A stretch of DNA of 64,000 nucleotides, taken from contig NW_026570240.1 of assembly GCF_019649055.1 (NCBI RefSeq), positions 620,001 to 684,000 on the forward strand. The letters are read 5' to 3'. The DNA comes from Paramacrobiotus metropolitanus (taxonomy: Eukaryota; Tardigrada; Eutardigrada; Parachela; Macrobiotidae). Made by a program: the position numbers and the translations under genes. The notes beneath the pieces were generated by a model. It had not been told where the DNA came from. It saw only the letters and a program-made list of their open reading frames with translations, and ran no database searches. Positions 21,078 to 51,100 of the stretch are shown in pieces. Each line of letters starts with the position of its first letter. Position 1 is the first letter of the stretch.

Positions 21078-23459
21078 TCAGTCACAGCAACAATCATCAC
21101 CACCACCACCACCCCAACCCCAACCCCAACCACCGTACTCACCTCCCCAACCACCATAGCCACCACCGCCGCCATAACCGCCACCTCCATGCCCGCCACC
21201 ACCATAACCACCACCCCCGTAGCCACCTCCACCACCGCCGTAACCCCCTCCTCCACCTCCATAACCTCCGCCTCCATATGAATCTCCTTTGCCATACCCT
21301 CCGCCACCATAACCACCACCGCCATAACTTCCGCCGCCGCCGCCGTAGCCGCCGCCTCCGTAACCACCTCCACCGTACGAACTGCCGCCACCTCCATAAG
21401 AGTCTCCCTTTCCGCCGTAACCACCGCCACCGTATGAGTCACCTTTACCACCATATCCACCTCCCCCATAACCTCCTCCACCGTAAGAATCCCCTTTTCC
21501 TCCATACCCTCCTCCTCCCCCGTAGCCGCCACCTCCATAGGAATCACCTTTTCCACCATAACCACCACCGCTATACGAATCGCCCTTGCCGCCATATCCG
21601 CCTCCACCATAGCTCATGCCACCTCCGTAGGAGTCACCTTTACCTCCATAGCCACCTCCGCCATATCCCCCGCCCCCGTATGAATCCCCTTTGCCTCCGT
21701 ATCCACCTCCTCCGTAACCGCCTCCCCCATAAGAATCACCTTTTCCTCCGTAACCGCCTCCCCCATAGGAATCTCCCTTTCCGTAACCGCCACCGCCACC
21801 ATATCCGCCTCCGCCGTATGAGTCCCCTTTGCCTCCGTATCCGCCACCCCCGTAACTGCTGCCGCCATATGAATCACCTTTCCCATAGCCACCGCCGCCG
21901 CCACCATAACTGCTCCCACCGTATCCACCACCGCCGTAGGAGTCACCTTTGCCGCCGTATCCTCCGCCCCCGTATGAGTCACCTTTCCCTCCATACCCGC
22001 CTCCACCGTATCCTCCGCCTCCGTAGCTGTCTCCTCCTCCACCGTAACTGTCGCCGCCACCATATGATCCGCCTCCTCCGTACCCGGACATGCGTTTCTT
22101 TCGAAGATGCTACCACAAAAGAAACATTAATTTATCCGAGGCCGCAATTATGAGCCACAGTATTGGTGCAGCGGTCCGTATTACAAGAACATAAGAAATG
22201 AACAGAAGTGGTGGAATACCAGAATCCAGTTCAAATTTCGTTTTGTTTGCTTACCTCTGTGTCGCTCTTTGCAACGTTGGTAGACATCAGTATTTTGCCG
22301 TCATCTCCTAAATTGTGTATTGTATTAACGCTTACTAGTTGCGTGTATTGTATTCGGGTACGTTTTCTTAAATAATTAACTTTATGCCAACTGCTTATTG
22401 CCGAAAATAATATCGATGATTTACGTAGGTACGTAGGCTTGGAGAGCTCACACCGTGAGAACATTTATCACAAAATGTACAAGCGCCAATACCGTGCAAA
22501 CATTTTTTATTACCAGAATTATGTATTTGCAAAGTACATAGGAGTACCAAAAATTTTTATTGGAAGTACTTTATCAAATTTCACCCAACGCCTGGCCACG
22601 GAATATATCACGGGCTTTTGAATAGAAGTGTTTAAGAAATCTGACAATAACCAACGAAGCAAAAACATACCTTTTTGACGGCGTCGGTATTCTTCCATGA
22701 ACTTCAAATATGAGTTGTAAGTTCTGTAATGGAAAGGAACTGCTTTAGACTTGCATGTTAACGGTTCATGAATACTAGTACCATAGTCTGACCTTTTGGG
22801 TAATCAGTGATCACGACTCACTACTGACGATGACCACATACCGTCAACCACGAATTTCTATATACCGAATCTATGTACCACTGTTATTATTTTTACGGGA
22901 TTATGATGCTTTTCTGAAAAGTCAGTACACAGCATTATTTAAATGAAAGTGCAGACAAAGACACACTCATCCCTAACTATTTACAAACATCCCATGCAGT
23001 GCAAATTCTGAACTGCATAAGTCCGTAGTTATCCGGGCTACGCAATATGTACGCACCTTGGAGGTGTACGAATCAAACTGCGAGACTTGTTTTTGTTTTT
23101 TTCCGTTAAATCCATGAGACCGAAAATGTTTGCCTTTTTAGGAAAAAGGCTCAGTAAAAATTCGGTTCTCGATAACGACTTTTTTACAAAGTCGTTAGCT
23201 GTTGCAGCTGTGCTCAAAGATTGATTGCCATTTCCGGTGACGTTGCTGTTATCAAAGGCAGACGGTTTTATTCGGTCCGGTACTGCTGCCGATATGAACA
23301 GAAGATAACAAGCTAGCTGTAAAAGAGTGAAACATTAATGTCACACTAAATGCGCGCAACAAAACCGTACCAACACTGCAAAAAATGCCCGACATGACGA
23401 CATTTAATCCTCCTAATTTTTACACTTACGCCAATCCACACCCTTATAGCGGAAATCAT
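21078..23459 (-). CDS. Secreted Gly/Tyr-rich repeat protein with pro-region and furin-type site
   Basis: Five exons (minus order): 23459..23430, 23316..23057, 22723..22671, 22307..22255, 22109..21078. They form one continuous frame of 475 residues with good splice sites at every join. Residues 1-~22 (MISAIRVWIGLACYLLFISA) form a signal peptide split by intron 1. A pro-region of about 110 residues follows, including SRTEFLLSLFPKKANIF and TYNSYLKFMEEYRRRQK. It ends in HLRKKR just before MSGYGGGG, a perfect R-x-K-R furin-type site. The remaining 337 residues are built of GGYGGKGDSYGGGG-type units with about 14 KGDSY cores. The end is Trp-rich then Cys-rich (WGWGWGG...DDCCCD). The product is probably an extracellular structural, adhesive or cuticle-like material; Lys and Tyr could be cross-linked. 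I do not recognise a named family. If only the last exon were real, it would lack a signal peptide. Confidence 0.7.
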
Positions 23460-26151
23460 TTTTGCTATTTCCTAACAGGTCTGGCATCGACGCCAGAAAT
23501 ATTTCTGGTCGCAAACGATCCGGACAACCTGTAGATCAGAAAAGTATTACTTGGTCAGGTTGCAAAATTAAGTCCCTACTTCTTAATTGTTAATAAAAAG
23601 CGAACATCGGTAGGTAGGTATAATGAGAAGTGTACTTGATAGTGGTATTTACCAATTTACAATGCCAGTTGTCGGAATTTATCAAACGGTAACTGCCAAT
23701 TTAGCCAACAAGTGATCAGCAACTGTTACATGCAATGCACCAGATTCCAATTAAACGACGTATCAACCCAACCATAATTATTCAAACGGATGGACAATCT
23801 CGTCTCTGGCCAATTTTGCACAGCATCATGTTAAATATACCACTTGCTAATCTACTTCTATGCACGAATGATATAACCAGAAATACGAGAATCATTGTCC
23901 TATTCTGTTGAGTTTTTCTTTTTTTAATTGTCGCAGTGATAACTTCGGAGGCCGGCGAACGGAACGTTTTTCAAACGTGGTTTAACGTTGAGGATTTACA
24001 ACTGCACAAATGGAAAACAGCGGATTCAATAAATGTGTATGCATTTGTACATAATATTTGCGTCAGTGCACAAAGAAGGTGAGGTGACCTCGACACATAT
24101 GGGTGCAAGGGTAGTGGAGCTGCACGAGCCCCCGCGCGCACCGCGCCGTCGTCGTGCCGCACTTGTCATGATTTGGATCCAATCCGTTAACAGAGCGTAA
24201 AAATTATAAAACTCATTGTTTCGAATTCTGTTGTTCTTACGGTTAGGCTTGCTCATACGGTCGTATTGCAACGGAAAAAACTCATGTAGGTGTTGCGATA
24301 TAACGTTTAATCGCTAACTGAAACAGTATTCTTTTACTTCTTTGTGTAATACGAAGTTATATAAGTGCATCGCAGGAGGAGTCGGTAGAAAAAAGCAACA
24401 AAACGTGTGTGCGTAACAGATAAGAAGCAGATTCTACTTTCTGGAGTATTAACCTTTACTTGCAAAAGCTGAAACTAAAATTGGCGGTAGAGGATCAAAT
24501 CACGTGCATGTACTTCATAAAGAAAATTCCTGATATGATTAAGAAAAATTTCATAATTAGTATTTACAGCTTTATAAGTATTATTATATCGAATTACAGT
24601 AGCCGAACTCCATGAACCAGACTTAACAGAATATTGAAAAACTTTTTGCTTACTTAATTTTGAAAATTTTGCACGTTTTTTTGTTAGCATATTCTACCGG
24701 TTTATCACAGTAAAGGTACTTATTTCGTAGTGAATCGTACGTATCGAGCAAATTTTTATTTAAAAAATATAATACATTTAAGTTAAAGTTTTTCTTTAGA
24801 ACCGGACCACGCATAAATAAAGTCGAACAGATTCAGAACATTTTTCTTGCTTGCTGCACACTGCCAACTAATTAACACCTGTATAACAATATGTGTAGGG
24901 ACATATTGTTTTATTTTTCGAAATATCTGTTTTTGAATAAATTTGTATTATTTTTACTACGTAGTACTTGCTGTAGCATTCCACTGTTTCAAACATTCAC
25001 CACTAAAACCTTTGTTTTTACTAATTACTAATTATGAATTAAATGTCTTCTGCAACGGGACAAACCCCCATTCGCATATGACAAGATGGCACGCCATATT
25101 ATCATATGAGAATAAGACAATTAATGACAAGAACGCAATAGTACATAACCCCAAAACTAAATACCTAACTCCATCCTACTGCAAAGCGCATTTTTCTACA
25201 AAAGCAAACTGGTTAAAACGAAGTCGGAACAACATAGGATATAATGAGGGGTAAGTTGTAACAGATTTTAACTAACCAGGTAAGAGTAGGTATTTAAGTT
25301 TTCGCAACCATTTTTACTGATATTCTTCCAATACTACTTCTGATAAACCAATATGCCTGTTGCAGTACAAAAGTACAACGAGAAAAATATTTACCACTGA
25401 CCACCGGCCAAGAAAACCGGTTTACTGTGTGCACACTGCACGTTACTGCCTCCATTAGGTAACTGCAGTAGATGATTATAAGTATGATACATTCTTTTCT
25501 GCATGCATTAAAGCAAAAGAAGCGTGTTTGGTTCAAGTAGCACATTTTTTTTATTCGCAATTATGCTGTTATGACTGAGAAAAAAACTATAAACACCTAA
25601 TGAGATCGTTTCGGTTACTTTCACTAGCACAATGCACGCCCGTTCGGTGCTAAAAGTATTGAAGATGTACAATAACCATGCAGCGATAAAAAATTTAAAT
25701 AGTGATGTCCACCAACATCTCACTTTTGTTTTTCCTTAGCAGCCTTTAGGTACTAGGCCATGATAATAAGGTTACCTCACCACAGCTCACTTCACTATAT
25801 TTTCCACAACATGCTAACCCTACACGATATGTCTACGCAATTACCTACTTTTCACAGACTTCGTAATGGATCAAAGACTTTTTGCACCGAATTTGGATCA
25901 CTTTAGTGAGCTCTGTGAGTACATATTCTGATGAAGCAACGCACGTTTACATAATTGTTTCCATATACAGAACATTTGCAAATCTTTGCATGCGTTTTGA
26001 CCAGCGACGATTAGCTTGCAATCCATCTTGTGACATACACAAACACAGTCATCTTTCTACATCAGTATCCCACCGCAGCCTACAATCCATGCAGTAGTTG
26101 TTGACTGGGAGCTAAATTTATTCTTTTCTAATATTGTATTTTTGCATCAAG
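23460..26151. other. Intergenic between divergent secreted-protein genes
   Basis: AT-rich with no supported gene. A GC-rich patch with CpGs at about 24090-24165 stands out. Short open frames there (an Arg-rich one on the minus strand) have no further support. Confidence 0.45.
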
Positions 26152-28856
26152 ATGATCTGGGCTTTAGCGTCCAATTTGGTGCTATTCGGACTTTCCGTCG
26201 TTAATGCGGCAAAATATTCGTCGACATACGGCGGAGATGACAGCTATTCTGGGGGCAGCAGTAGCTACAGCAGTCCAAGTGGTGGTGGAGGTGACTACGG
26301 ATATGCTACCGGGGGCGGCAATGCTTACACGGGAGTGGCACAAGCACCGTCCAAGTATCCGCCGGCAATGACACACGAGCGCAATCGTCAGCTGACCGGA
26401 TACACCCTTCCGCCCTCTGCCAAGCAATTCCAGCAAAAGTTTGAAGGACTTTTTGATGATTTTCCCGGACCAAAAACAAAAGCTAAGGTGTATTACCCTG
26501 GCAGAGGGTAAGATCAGAACTTTATTGCTAATGAGTAATGATTATTTGATAGACCAAATCTTCTTTGTTTAATAGTTCATATTGTTAAGCAAGCTTAAGT
26601 GTTCTTACATTCGTTCAACTGGATAACATCATCATAACATGATTTTTCGGTTTGTTTCTTTAACTTATCCTTTTTAGGGACGTTAGAGCACAACAATAAC
26701 AAATAGCAAATAGTACAACCTACGTTTGCCCAAATAAGCATAAATTCTGATTTATGTGCACCGTAAGTTATTTAATAATAATAATTCCATAATTACTTTC
26801 TAGGTATATAACTATGCAAGTACCAGTTCAGCAACCTGATGCTTATGGAAAAGGGCAGTCCTATTCATCGTCGTCGTACTCGGCGCCTAGTTATGACGAC
26901 AACAGCTACTCCAGTGGACCCAGCTATAATCCGGCCCCGCCTCCTCCTTCGTATGGTGGCAGTCGTCCGTCCTATCCAGCAGGATCCGCCAACGAAGATG
27001 ACGATTCGCCTTTCGGTTACATGGTGAAGAAAGGTTACTCGGGGTCATCGTCTAGCAGCTACTCTCCTTCGCCGCCGGCATATCGCCCGCCTTCTCCGTC
27101 CGCCTACAATCCTGGACCCTCTTCCTACCAGCCACCACAGCCCAGCTACGGAGGAGGAGGACCTTCAGGTCAGTACAGTGCATACAAGGGCAACAGTGTG
27201 CAGCGTACTAGTAGTCCAGCTCCGCCCAGCACATCCTTGTACATCACGTTTAAGGACGCTGCAGCCAAACCGTACTTGACTGCGCATACTCCAGATGTTT
27301 CTCTTGCATCAGGAGGTTATAACGGCGGATCAGGTGGTGGCGGCGGCGGTGGAGGCGGCTACAATCCCAGTGGGTATAAGCCGTCTTCCTATCCCTCCAG
27401 TTACCCAGGAGATGCCGACTCGTCGGGTGCATATCCCAGCCAAGACTATGGAAATGGGTAAGTGACCTTTTTCCCAGCTCACCAATTAGTTTACAGCATG
27501 CACTTTAATATAAGAACTGCTCAAGCTATACTCAAGCAAAATGAATATCTAGCTATTCGATGCTGTTACTAAATCCTGCACCTATCGCTCTATCGTAAAA
27601 TTGCACGAAAGGTGTGGCGCTACGTTTAGATACTATACGTTTTACAAAATTATGTGCTACCGCTGACGCATGACTGGATAGTAATTTGAACTTAACCTGT
27701 TAATCAGATTGCAAGCAATGGATTTACTGTACATGTTGCATGAATTCGTAATGGGAAATTCTTACCATCCTGCGAACTGACAGTAATAGTTGCATGGTTT
27801 CAATATCGTCAATACACATCATTTTTATAGTTTTTGAAACAATCAGTAACCAGATCATTGCGAAGCATTAAAGAAAATAGAATAATTGTGCAACGCAGAA
27901 GATATCCAAAAAGCATGCTAGCAGTATGAAGCGGATTGCTAAAATTTGTGTTTTCGGCAATATGTCATTTTCTTCGGACAGTTTTACGACTGCATGAACC
28001 AGATCTTCTTTAATTAATCTTTTTTATTGCTTTTTCGCAAATATCCTTTACACTTACAGTATGGTGAATCTATTGTTGCCGCATGCATGCACAATTTTCG
28101 GAAGTTTGGACTTGATTGCACCTTTTCTCTTTTAATTAACAGTTGCGGCATAGCATAAAATAATTATGTGTTTTCGTAACGGGTAACCGAAAATTGATTT
28201 CACGATATAAAGGTACCGATCCCGTCCATATATGAGATGATGATTCCCATATTATGTGAAGGCCAATTGCTTGCAAATATCGATGCAGGTATGCAGAGCC
28301 GCTTTTGTGACTTTAATAAAGCGTTTCTGAACTAGACAATGCAATTTTTAGCTATGCATATCCTAGTGGTATATAACTTTATTAGGCTTAAGCCAGTATA
28401 CATAACAATTCGCGTGCGCAGCTTTACACTAATTAAAAGCACAAATTTTATATTCCTAATGGTTTAACTACACACATGATTACTTAACCAATGATTCACA
28501 TTTGCAGTAATGAACACAACTAAAAATAATACAAGTGCTTTACCTTTAAAACAACTCCACGCTACTTCAATAATTATTATGTGCAAGCAGTATTACGTAA
28601 ACAACAGACGCCGAAGTACACGCTGTCACTTACAGATAGAACACTCGTAGCAAATGTGTGTACAGATACTTTTATTGCTGCTGCAAAAAGTTTACTGTGG
28701 TTGGGCGATCACTTTTTCTAGTAAAGTCAAATAAATTAATTGACGAACGTCTTTAGAAATTAATTCGATGTTGCTGCATTTGTTTCCAGCGCCCGCTCCA
28801 ATTCATATAGTGGAAACAGCCACGACAGAGATTTTTACGGACCCGCAGAATCTTAG
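26152..28856 (+). CDS. Secreted Ser/Tyr/Gly/Pro-rich protein
   Basis: Exons are 26152..26507, 26804..27457 and 28790..28856 (358 residues, phases 2 and 2 close correctly). The signal peptide is MIWALASNLVLFGLSVVNA, with mature start near AKYSSTYGG. Composition is dominated by Ser, Tyr, Gly and Pro (YSSSSYSAPSYDD, PPPSYGGSRPSYP, a poly-Gly run near residue 315). Two more ordinary, possibly folded stretches occur: HERNRQLTGYTLPPSAKQFQ with FDDFPGPKTKAKVYYPGRG, and SLYITFKDAAAKPYLTAHTP. The last exon was found across a 1.3-kb intron. It continues the same composition (GARSNSYSGNSHDRDFYGP) to a stop, which supports it. It is probably an extracellular matrix, cuticle or secretion protein. No named family is recognised. 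It lies between two other Gly/Tyr-rich secreted genes. Confidence 0.75.
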
Positions 28857-28990
28857 AGCCGACGATGTCCGAAACTGTTTTATATTTGTGAATTTATGGG
28901 TAATACTGGACCTTTGTTCATTCTTTCTGAAGCTGTTTGTGTTATTATTTTTTCCTATGCATTTGTACCATTTCAAATGCCGAATCCCTC

Positions 28991-28996
28991 AATAAA
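28991..28996 (+). terminator. Poly(A) signal AATAAA
   Basis: AATAAA lies 135 bp after the stop of the Ser/Tyr/Gly-rich gene, in the correct orientation. Confidence 0.5.
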
Positions 28997-30097
28997 GTCT
29001 CTAAGGGTGACTTCGTGGTAAAGACGCTCATATGCATACTGGAAGTGTAATAATGGCACTGTAGCTGATATTAAACGATAAATTGTCACTAAAACACCAA
29101 TTTAAGTTAATTCTAACCAGGGTATATCGTTTCGTAGTACATAAACGTAATCAGTTAACTAACTTGTAAGGTTACACTGCATCTGATTATTAAGCAAACT
29201 ATTCATTAGTGCATTCACGACTTCAGTGCTAGTAATCTGTAATCTCAATAGTTAACTTAGTCAACTTCTGGGTGCTTAATTGCAGATTTATTATTTACTT
29301 TATATATAGATACTGACCAGCAATCAGCGAAACTCCGATATTACTGAATCAGCATTCGGAACCGCTTGCTTGGTCTACTGAAGTACATAATTGTCGTTTT
29401 TGTTGTAGTATCAAAAAGTTTAAGGCCGTTAACGGTAAAAGTCATTGGAGATCTGTAATTACGAGAGCCGAAAACCATGTTTAGCAACCTTCGTAACTGT
29501 CGTCGACGTACAAAGAAAAGTGCGTCTGCATTCAAGTGTGATCCAAGCCAGTGTTGATATGTTCCGCATTGACACATCGCGATTAATTGACCGCTAATAC
29601 GTAAACTGTATGCGGCTCATACCGATCAAATAATGTCCACTATGGTGGACGTGGAGCAAATGCGCACTGCTACTAGCGACATCGTAATTGAAAAGGACAT
29701 CGCTCAAGCAGGATTGGCTTTCGTGTATAATCATTACGGTAACGAATATCACCGTACATTGGACATGTAACATACGGCACAAAACATTCAACCAAGTAGT
29801 CCGCGCAAAATGCCGATTCTTCAGAGCTAAGGTTGTACATGAGTGGCCAAAGAACTAGAGCAGCGCTCCGCGAACAGCTCCCGTACGCCGTATGCAAACG
29901 AGCTTTCAGGTTAGATTTCCGGCATACCGTCGACAGTAGCCGTCGAGGCCTTGAACTTCCGCCGCGTTGTATATAAGACAGCTTGTTAGGCAACACCAAA
30001 TCATTCACTTCTCTTTCATCCGCTTACTGGTCTTTGCATATAGCTGCCCATTACGACCGTAATCCTTTCGATCGGTTCCCTGCTCGACTCTTCTACA
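28997..30097. other. Intergenic, no gene seen
   Basis: This separates two same-strand secreted-protein genes. Open frames on the minus strand (29594-30008) have no splice or homology support. Confidence 0.45.
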
Positions 30098-30669
30098 ATG
30101 CAATCCATTTTGAGAATGGTAAAACTTGTTGTCCTGTTTATTTTCTGTTGGATATGTTAATTTCAAAGAGAATTGTTGCTTTCAGATTTTGATCTCCCTG
30201 TGCGCGGCGTGCTTCCTGTTTGTGGTAGCGGAGTGTGCTTCGAGGCAGAAAAGAGGAGGTGGTTACGGCGGCGGATATGGTGGTTACAACCTTTACGGGT
30301 ATGCGGTGCCTATGTAACACGAATTTTCACGAAACAGACGCTGTACCCTCTCTTGTATTTGCAGCCCCTATTACGACAAATTCGACTTTTACTACGGTAA
30401 GTACAATAATAATTATTTCGGTGCATCGTATCATAATTCAGCGATAAAGGTCATAGGCTTAGCAGTAACCTGAAATTTAATGCGGTTTTGCTTTAGGAAT
30501 TCCCGGCTTCCATGTTTACTCGAAATACGGTAAGATCTTATGCAAATTTTCCAACTGAAATTCCTGCCAAATAGGATATTAAATAGGATCGGGAGATTAT
30601 GGATACGGGAAGGCCGTGTTCGCTGGAGAGCATGGATATGGAGGAGGTTATGGAGGTGGTGGCTATTGA
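30098..30669 (+). CDS. Small secreted Gly/Tyr-rich peptide with furin-type site
   Basis: Five small exons: 30098..30118, 30186..30298, 30365..30396, 30497..30529, 30587..30669. They join in one frame of 93 residues. The signal peptide (MQSILRMILISLCAACFLFV, ending VAECA) is split by intron 1. After it comes SRQKR, an R-x-K-R furin-type site, then GGGYGGGYGGYNLYG, a Tyr/Phe-rich middle (PYYDKFDFYYGIPGFHVYS) and a second Gly-Tyr tail (HGYGGGYGGGGY). Three introns interrupt the Gly codon of a YG pair at phase 1 or 2. It is probably an extracellular structural or antimicrobial-type Gly-rich peptide. The family is unknown. It shares signal peptide, RxKR and Gly-Tyr design with the 475-residue protein at 21.1-23.5 kb. 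Confidence 0.75.
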
Positions 30670-31492: not shown

Positions 31493-31586
31493 GTGGAGGT
31501 GGCCGAGTGGTTAAGGCGTTTGGCTGCTAATTTTCTCAGTAACCAAATGGGCTCTGCCCGCATGAGTTCGAATCTCATCCTTCACG
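31493..31586 (+). tRNA. tRNA-Ser(GCT) with a 12-nt intron
   Basis: The acceptor stem GTGGAGG pairs with CCTTCAC (one G-T). The D arm is GGCCGAGTGGTTAAGGC. The anticodon stem TTTGG pairs with CCAAA around the loop C-T-GCT-A, and the anticodon GCT is at 31526-31528. The long variable arm (GGGCTCTGCCC) is typical of tRNA-Ser. The T arm is ATGAG-TTCGAAT-CTCAT and the discriminator is G. The twelve bases 31530-31541 (ATTTTCTCAGTA) sit after position 37 and are the expected intron site. Confidence 0.93.
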
Positions 31587-48144: not shown

Positions 48145-51100
48145 ATGGAAAGCAGTCCTTCTGTAGCGCTGGACCATGGTTCCGTAGCCGTTGAAGCCAT
48201 CAGTTCAGTGGAAAACAGTGCGTCGCTTGCAACTCTTCCCGCGAAGGCGGCAAAACGTAAACGAGGCGCTCGCCAGGCTGCCCCGGTCACGATGAATCTG
48301 CGATCTCGGAAGTATTTGGTATCCGTTAAAGAAACTGCTGAAAGCCAGAGCGTGCAGCCTTCGACTTCAACTGGGAGCACTGTGAGTAGAGCGATGCTTT
48401 CTGTCTAATCTGGCCTGCGATTACTATTTTACATTTTTTCGGAAATTGGTTTCAGAAGAATGAAGCGTATGCGCACACAAAAGTGGAGAACGCTTCGCCT
48501 TTGAGCCACTGTAAAATGGAAGATGCGAGGTTGGCCGAGGTATGGGTTATTGATTGGTTTTCAGTTCTAATCAGACTTGTAAAGCGCTCCGAGTTGATTT
48601 GCATTTTATGTACACCGGTTATGTTCTTGTTTTATCAATATTTTAAGCGTTTTGCCGCGTGCTTCCGGTTGTTTGAGTTCGATAAGGGATAAGATTTTCT
48701 GCTGTAGAAGAATGTTGATGGATCTGCTGAACCCGATGACGAGAACGCCAAAGGCGAACTCTGCTTGCATAGTAATCCTGAAAATAATGCGCAGTCTGGG
48801 ACAGCTGAGCAGGTGCGACTCATAAGGGCAGTTTCACATTGACCGCCGGCTTTGAACAAAATATTCAACAGTTGATCGAAGAACACTGAAGTTTCCGTTC
48901 TATCTTCAGACATGTCTCGGAGCACTTGCGGAAAACGAAAGCCTGCGTGGCGACACAACCGACACTGCCCAGAACTGTAAACCTTGTTCAGGATATACGG
49001 ATGTTCCATTGGGGAATGCTGGCGTGAATGCAGTCTTTATCAGTGAAGTGAGGGCGAGTCATGTGATTTTAGCAGGGTAATTGTTAAGCTGTTTTTGGCT
49101 GTTGGCAGGATGAACCGAAAGATACCCCACCGGAACATATGTCAGTTAACCGAGAAGCTCCCGACGCAGAGGACGCTCCCCAGATTGTGCGGCGTTTGCG
49201 GCGGCGGTCTATTTATGCTCCTTTGGTAAGGTTATCACCTGGATGCGCTAGAAAGTTGTGCAGTTAATTTTCATGATATCATTAGTTTGCGAAAACCTTT
49301 ACAAATGGCCGGAAAAAGCGCGACAACGATCGAGCTAAATCTTCGTCTTCGGACGGAACGCTGTCTGGTAGTGCTAGTCCTGTTCCAAGTGGACCGTCAT
49401 CTGGAGAGACGAGCAATGAGTTGAAAGCTTCGTTGAGTAGCCCAGGTCGAATCGTCAAGCGTCGACCAAGTCTGAGCAATGTTAATCAAAATGTGAGGTT
49501 CTGTGGCTTCTGCATGTGCTACGAGATGTGCTGCTTGTCCTTCGTGTAAACTTTTGTTGCTTTCTGTGAAGAATGATGTTTCATTACTATTTGAACCTAC
49601 TTTTTCAGATAATGCATATATTATATTTATAGCATCACTTTACACACAAGTGAAGTTTTAATTAAATTGCGGTGTCTCTGATGTATGTATTATAGATTCG
49701 TGCTGAAATAGCAGAGAAGAATTGCGAGGACAAACCTGTTGATCACAGTGTGGATGTTGGAACTCCGCAGAGCAGCGATGTTGCTGGATGTTCAGTTGAA
49801 TCTGACCTCTTATCGGAAACAGTGCCAGCAAAGAAAATACGGAGCCGGAGACGGTTAACGTAAGCGCATTTAAATGTGTACTTCGAGATAAGTTTCGAGA
49901 TACGAAGTATATTGTGCAAATTAGTCCAGCTTAACGTACGAATTTAAGGTATTTAAAAGCGAAATTCCCGGCGGGAATGATGACCCATTCTGGTTGTGGA
50001 TCTAGGATCTCATCACCGGAAGTTGCTGGAAGAGTACTGCGTAAAAGAAAGGCTGCATCGCCCGAAGAAACACACAATGATTTAGTAGTATCGGCTTGTG
50101 GTCCTATTCGTGATTTCGAATTTACTGGCTCTTCAGCTTCGTTGACCTTGAGTTCTTCTTCAACGGATCTCTTGGATCATACATCTGGACCCCGCGGAAT
50201 TTTAAAACGACAAGAACATCCCCACAAACATCGACGATTGGCTTTTATCGACGAATCTGCTGAAGATCGCGAAGTATTTTTAGCCTTTTTGTTCTTTAAT
50301 GTTTCTCCAGAGCAGTGAATTTTCTTTTTGCTTAATGAAACAGAGGCTGGCTCAAGATCGTCGAGTGGAGGTCGAAGCAAACGTTGATGAAGCACCTATC
50401 CCGCATTTATTACCGCTGTGCCCGAGCACCCTTGCCACGGCTCAGTCACAAGAGGCCAAATTAAGAGTGTCAAATTTCCGTGTTTTGTCCTGGAATATAG
50501 CTGGACTAAGTGCATTTTTGCAGGTTGTACTTCTCAGGTGCTTTATCTTGTTATGGAACCAATTTTTAACTGAATGTTTTGAATAGAAAAACACGTGGCG
50601 AGAAATCAACGCCTATCTTCCAGATGTCATTTGCCTTCAGGAAACCAAAATTCAAAGTAATGAATTGTTGGAAGGTCTGGGCGTGGACGTTGGGACATCC
50701 TGCGCTTACTGGCACCAGAGTGTTGTCAAGGGGCATGCGGGCGTTGCATTGTTATCAAAATTCAAACCGATTAATGTGCTTTATGGATTTCCTCGTAAGA
50801 TCCACTTTGAGATGTTGGCTGGGCATTCCATTTAAAAATTAATTTTTCCAGGATCTAATGGACGCACATTTTCTGAAAAGGGACATGTCATCACGGCTGA
50901 ATACGACAGAATGTTTGTGGTGAACGCATGTACGTTTCAACTCTGTAGTTTTGAATGCGTGAAAGAATGACTTTTTTTTATAATGGGCGTCCTTGACTTT
51001 ACTTACTGATGGGTTTGTTACAGAGTTAGGGTTATTGTTGTCCGTTGATTTTATTACGTATTTTTTACTGCAGACTGATATGAAGCAACGGTTGCACTAT

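What the first reader, a model, noticed from the sequence alone, without database searches (positions are those of the whole stretch)
21078..30669. Local cluster of three secreted Gly/Tyr-rich proteins, two with R-x-K-R directly before the Gly-Tyr domain
Within 10 kb there are three unrelated-length genes (475, 358 and 93 residues), all with signal peptides and strong Gly/Tyr/Ser bias. The 475- and 93-residue products share the design signal peptide, (pro-region), RKKR or RQKR, then (M/S)GYGG or GGGYGG. This suggests that a sticky or self-assembling Gly-Tyr polymer is kept quiet until furin-type cleavage. I know of no described family with this layout. It could be an adhesive, silk-, eggshell- or cuticle-forming system.
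Basis: partly seen in the sequence, partly recalled or inferred. Interest (0 to 1): 0.75.

Follow-up and report, generated by a model that had tools for sequence, protein, structure and literature searches.

The report
Tardigrade secreted glycine-tyrosine-rich proteins
Three neighbouring genes in what is most likely the tardigrade Paramacrobiotus metropolitanus seem to encode secreted glycine-, tyrosine- or serine-rich structural proteins, two of them with a furin-type cutting site just before the repetitive part; such genes are common in this genome, and the cutting site is the only unusual feature.

Summary
The genes are probably real. The 475-residue (G1) and 93-residue (G3) models rebuild exactly with GT-AG introns; the middle gene (G2) comes out at 343, not 358, residues. 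The host is a eutardigrade, most likely Paramacrobiotus metropolitanus.

GY-rich genes are an ordinary class here: a strict GYGGGGYGG pattern finds 19 loci, one GY protein has a chitin-binding domain, and another cluster lies on contig 14. The cluster itself is not special.

R-x-K/R-R directly before the Gly-Tyr part is rare: two cases in this window, none in the same frame at the 17 (of 18) other GY loci fetched. The layout is not unknown: RxxR occurs in 45 of 56 signal-peptide-bearing C. elegans cuticle collagens, and signal, pro-peptide, glycine-rich region in antimicrobial peptides.

Best reading: extracellular matrix proteins (cuticle, eggshell or mouthparts), two perhaps trimmed by a proprotein convertase. 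Cleavage, tissue and 'kept quiet until cut' are untested; I had no RNA data and no second tardigrade genome.

The parts
23430..23459 (-). G1 exon A (MISAIRVWIG), first part of signal peptide; position uncertain, several alternatives score alike
23057..23316 (-). G1 exon B: rest of signal peptide (LACYLLFISAAVPD) and most of the pro-region
22671..22723 (-). G1 exon C: pro-region (TYNSYLKFMEEYRRRQK)
22255..22307 (-). G1 exon D: end of pro-region; weak acceptor (-0.5)
21078..22109 (-). G1 exon E: HL-RKKR then a 337-residue Gly-Tyr domain (62.9% G, 16.0% Y; 13 KGDSYGG; DDCCCD tail)
22092..22103 (-). RKKR furin-type motif of G1
26152..26507 (+). G2 exon 1: signal peptide MIWALASNLVLFGLSVVNA and Y/S/G-rich part
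26804..27457 (+). G2 exon 2: S/G/P/Y-rich domain; no RxKR beside it
28289..28310 (+). G2 terminal exon (provisional), AATAAA 4 nt after the stop
29970..29976 (+). TATATAA 128 nt before the G3 start codon (weak evidence: 36 such motifs on this strand of the 64 kb window)
30098..30118 (+). G3 exon 1 (MQSILRM), start of signal peptide; an alternative at 29892-29909 has a higher splice score
30186..30298 (+). G3 exon 2: signal peptide core, RQKR, GGGYGGGYGGY
30243..30254 (+). RQKR furin-type motif of G3
30365..30396 (+). G3 exon 3
30497..30529 (+). G3 exon 4
30587..30669 (+). G3 exon 5, Gly-Tyr end of protein; weak acceptor (-1.4)

Best explanation
G1, G2 and G3 are genes for secreted glycine/tyrosine/serine-rich structural proteins of a eutardigrade, belonging to a broad genome-wide class of such proteins that probably build an extracellular matrix (cuticle, gut lining, mouthparts or eggshell). 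In G1 and G3 the chain enters the ER and loses its signal peptide; a proprotein convertase then cuts after RKKR or RQKR, freeing a Gly-Tyr polymer, which associates through its aromatic residues and is cross-linked through tyrosines (and, in G1, perhaps the C-terminal cysteines). Cutting may serve secretion or the timing of assembly. Shown: Gly-Tyr frame, consistent exon chains, motif positions, the genomic class, presence of convertase domains. Inferred: secretion, cleavage, cross-linking, tissue.
For: Exon models, shuffle tests, codon-position test. Tardigrade identity (genome size). 19 strict GY loci; 11 of 17 GY exons tested (16 loci) have a candidate signal peptide in the same exon or across one intron; one GY protein with a CBM_14 chitin-binding domain, E 6.7e-10. 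Convertase P-domain matches. Precedents: RxxR in 45 of 56 C. elegans cuticle collagens with signal sequences, tyrosine cross-linking of those collagens; GGY motifs tied to silk and cuticle hardening (passages).
Against: No transcript, peptide or cross-species data. Codon usage barely supports G1's pro-region (about 2.7 bits). No Pfam or PDB match for the pro-region and none for G3. G1's N-terminal part, G2 exons 1-2 and G3 match only themselves in G000, so no paralogue confirms the exon joins or the motif. 6 of 17 GY exons tested gave no signal peptide with my simple rule. Some other window stretches reach G1's splice score (15 of 1,211 at 27 or more).
Confidence: 0.55

Rival explanations
1. 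The proteins are secreted structural Gly-Tyr proteins, but the basic motifs are not cut: RKKR and RQKR are basic patches or coincidences, and two neighbours having them is post hoc selection.
For: Only two cases, no conservation data; the RxxRGGGY pattern hits the genome no more often than its control (4 against 3).
Against: Both motifs are full R-x-K-R, both sit at the boundary of the Gly-Tyr part, and in the 17 other GY loci fetched none was found in the same frame before a GY stretch (a motif parted from the GY exon by an intron would be missed).
Confidence: 0.22
2. G1 starts at the ATG directly after RKKR; RKKR is then 5' untranslated and the protein is intracellular. Exons A-D belong to another transcript or to none.
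For: An ATG follows RKKR directly; codon usage in the upstream exons is near neutral.
Against: A chain with four introns keeps the frame into the Gly-Tyr exon and scores above all 2,000 shuffles; other GY proteins of this genome have candidate signal peptides (11 of 17).
Confidence: 0.1
3. G3 (and perhaps G1) is a glycine-rich antimicrobial peptide released from a pro-peptide, not a structural protein.
For: Glycine-rich antimicrobial peptides are described as signal peptide, pro-peptide, glycine-rich region (PMC11772090, passage); G3's mature part would be 63 residues, 38.1% G and 23.8% Y.
Against: The genomic class looks structural, one member with a chitin-binding domain; no Pfam family at all for G3.
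Confidence: 0.13

Closest known systems
C. elegans cuticle collagens with N-terminal RxxR, cut by BLI-4 (PMC10538796)
   Same: Secreted repetitive matrix protein, N-terminal segment ending in a furin-type site, tyrosine-based cross-linking (section 18)
   Different: Triple-helical Gly-X-Y collagen, no Gly-Tyr repeats; no sequence relation claimed
Glycine-rich proteins of ticks and insect cuticle, GGY group (PMC11772090 passages; PMC11794139 abstract listing)
   Same: Signal peptide, Gly-rich chain with GGY motifs, cement or cuticle role
   Different: No furin site mentioned in the tick review ('furin' 0 occurrences)
Glycine-rich antimicrobial peptides (attacin, acanthoscurrin and others named in PMC11772090)
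   Same: Signal peptide, pro-peptide, glycine-rich region as described there
   Different: Known members are immune peptides; G1's 337-residue repeat domain looks structural (judgement)
Other GY-rich proteins of the same genome (L018-L030, L032-L034)
   Same: Gly-Tyr repeats, candidate signal peptides in 11 of 17 exons tested, some clustered
   Different: No R-x-K/R-R beside a GY stretch in the same frame

Membership tests
Secreted glycine-rich proteins (GRP) | Glycine content of 20% or more (definition in the abstract of PMC11772090) - G1 and G3 | tested here: met
   G1 GY domain 62.9%; G3 25.8%
Secreted glycine-rich proteins (GRP) | Glycine content of 20% or more - G2 | tested here: not met
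   G2 15.5% G; it is an S/G/P/Y-rich protein
Secreted glycine-rich proteins (GRP) | Signal peptide | tested here: met
   Hydrophobic core plus (-3,-1) rule for G1, hydrophobic core for G3, by eye for G2; no SignalP
Secreted glycine-rich proteins (GRP) | Presence in cuticle, cement, silk or eggshell | not testable with these tools
   No expression or proteome data at hand
Convertase-processed proproteins | R-x-K/R-R after a signal peptide | tested here: met
   RKKR and RQKR; G2 has none beside its GY-rich parts
Convertase-processed proproteins | Cleavage at the site | not testable with these tools
   Needs peptide N-termini
Nematode-type cuticle collagens | Gly-X-Y triple-helix repeats | tested here: not met
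   GY repeats instead; no Pfam family
Glycine-rich antimicrobial peptides | Antimicrobial activity or immune induction | not testable with these tools
   Needs an assay
Arthropod cuticular proteins (R&R chitin-binding type) | Chitin-binding domain (Pfam) | tested here: not met
   No Pfam match for the GY exon of G1, exons 1 and 2 of G2, exon 2 of G3, the G1 pro-region and whole G3

The most novel reading that the evidence does not exclude
Tardigrades make some of their Gly-Tyr matrix polymers as proproteins: a convertase cut exactly at the polymer boundary releases a silk-like chain only at the right place and time, and this locus holds the proprotein branch of the class, evolved outside collagens.
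Probability: 0.2. Interest if true: 0.6.

Novelty: new variant of a known kind. Interest (0 to 1): 0.36.

Why it matters
The rows listed by my paper searches showed no work on Gly-Tyr proteins of tardigrade cuticle, eggshell or mouthparts; I did not see all rows. A genome-wide class of Gly-Tyr proteins gives candidates, and two with convertase sites would let one ask whether proprotein cleavage controls matrix assembly in ecdysozoans beyond nematode collagens.

Tried and rejected
No result or little use: Pfam on the G1 GY exon, G2 exons 1-2 and G3 exon 2 and on the G1 pro-region and whole G3: none; PDB search with the G1 pro-region: none; searches of G000 for paralogues of G1's N-terminal part, G2 and G3: self only, and low-complexity parts may have been skipped; lipocalin search and FABP comparison for a taxon marker: uninformative. 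Three pattern hits fetched as possible further members (L015, L016, L017) are not GY proteins. L031 looked like a further RxKR case, but its GY part lies before RKKR and neighbouring exons look like an alpha-2-macroglobulin-type gene (by eye). The natural-stretch control with coding scores is not clean, since stretches with real genes score high in it (75 of 607 at 30 or more); I added the splice-only control, in which some other places also score as high as G1. The comparison of 12 KGDSYGGG units was picked by protein identity, so only the third-position figure (5.0 of 8 codons differing) is informative. A paper search for glycine-rich, tyrosine, furin cleavage site, signal peptide and cuticle together found 0 papers; one for furin and vitelline membrane gave 4 papers, none with 'furin'. 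An intron inside the signal peptide as a mark of cuticle genes was looked for in print and not borne out by the one paper found. Structure prediction was not run: disordered repeats and an orphan pro-region.
Full report
What it is in. The window is G000:C20:620001-684000 of a 169.8 Mb assembly in 533 contigs. A 23-residue query built on the H. exemplaris PDF-2 neuropeptide (peptide printed in PMC11879619, passage; basic flanks added by me) hit two loci (E 7.9e-5 and 0.002), whose frames read KRNSEILNTLIGLPAKLRLRG and KRNSEILNTLIGLPARLKLKG. Together with the reported 170 Mb genome of Paramacrobiotus metropolitanus (passages of PMC11191345 and PMC9224920) this makes a eutardigrade, most likely that species. 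Its public assembly has accessions 1 to 684 (PMC9592077 passage), so 533 contigs is not an exact match; the species remains an inference.

The three genes. G1, minus strand, five exons, 475 aa: signal peptide of about 20 residues (MISAIRVWIGLACYLLFISA, end judged by eye), about 118 further residues ending in RKKR (residues 135-138), then 337 residues of Gly-Tyr repeats (62.9% G, 16.0% Y) ending DDCCCD. RKKR is the only R-x-K/R-R in G1. G3, plus strand, five exons, 93 aa: MQSILRMILISLCAACFLFVVAECA-SRQKR-GGGYGG; the 63 residues after RQKR are 38.1% G and 23.8% Y. TATATAA lies 128 nt upstream of its start codon; the same motif class occurs 36 times on that strand of the window, and G1 and G2 have none within 400 nt, so this is weak. 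G2, plus strand, three exons in my model, 343 aa (reader: 358), 17.8% S, 15.5% G, 12.8% P, 11.4% Y, no RxKR beside its GY-rich parts.

Are the models real? The Gly-Tyr frame of G1 has third-position entropy 1.87 bits against 1.17 and 1.15. For the upstream exons, a mini gene finder with generic splice matrices (recalled consensus values), a hydrophobicity rule for signal peptides and codon usage from seven stretches of the window taken as coding gives a best chain of 30.1, and 29.7 for the 475-aa chain; 1 of 2,000 shuffles reaches 25 and none 30 (maximum 25.9). On splice scores alone 27.7, against 10 of 2,000 shuffles at 20 and none at 23. Of 1,211 other window stretches 47 reach 20, 40 reach 23, 25 reach 25 and 15 reach 27. 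The 25 lie at five places: two at G2 and G3, three others that I did not examine, one of which reaches 30.8. Weak points: the pro-region's codon usage adds about 2.7 bits; alternative first exons score within a few bits; G3 has an alternative first exon with a better splice score (6.8 against 4.3) and a weak last acceptor (-1.4).

How unusual? GYGGGGYGG occurs 66 times at 19 loci (0 in the reversed control). I fetched 17 of the other 18 (not C254). All 17 contain GY-rich frames. Of 17 GY exons tested from 16 loci (L031 left out) 11 gave a signal peptide candidate, some weak, and 6 did not (L019, L022, L023, L025, L028, L034). L030 joins a GY part to CBM_14 (same strand, neighbouring exons, join not tested). 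GY exons lie at C14:24.6-25.2, 26.3-26.5, 27.3-27.9 and 28.9-29.8 kb and again at 49.4-50.0 kb. A scan of 6,009 frames in the window and 23 loci found R-x-K/R-R with a GY stretch within 25 residues after it twice, both in this window, and once with the GY stretch before it (L031); motifs parted from the GY exon by an intron would be missed. Genome pattern searches: RxxRGGGY 4 hits (control 3), of which I read G3 and L017; RxKRxxGYG 49 hits (control 16), of which I read four (two here, L015, L016).

How it may work. Convertase P-domains exist (8 stretches over the cut-off). In C. elegans 45 of 56 cuticle collagens with predicted secretion signals have RxxR; cleavage-site or BLI-4 loss traps two collagens in the cell, and the authors offer that cutting may prevent premature assembly; these collagens show tyrosine-based cross-linking (PMC10538796: abstract and section 18). 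A tick glycine-rich protein phase-separates and forms viscoelastic solids (PMC11794139 abstract start; PMC11772090 passage). By analogy G1 and G3 would be trimmed in the secretory path and then cross-linked. This is inference.

Literature limits. No paper on Gly-Tyr proteins of tardigrades was among the rows listed (3 of 3; 12 of 4,462; 0; 12 of 359; 12 of 39; 3 of 3), all within the held open-access library.

Noticed in passing
L031:919-1248 (-), C42: GY-rich insert followed by DDDRKKRSSDDD inside a gene whose neighbouring exons look like an alpha-2-macroglobulin/thioester protein (by eye; the GY exon has no Pfam match)
   Followed up: partly
L030:2737-3508 (+), C30: GY-rich frames beside a CBM_14 chitin-binding domain frame, probably one secreted protein
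   Followed up: partly
L024, L026, L032: Three paralogous GY genes share the block GDLFSFPFGYSSGYGYGYRRYIPVPWWIWYPSSFGYNKGFGFG
   Followed up: no
L018, L019, L027: Long Gly-rich frames: L018 and L019 share VIVGTPV repeats, L027 has the near form VVVGTPV
   Followed up: no
C14:24589-29769 and 49409-50036 (L021, L035, L022): A second cluster of GY-rich exons
   Followed up: partly
window 31493-31586 (+): tRNA found by Rfam (94 nt, so possibly with an intron) but not by ARAGORN
   Followed up: no
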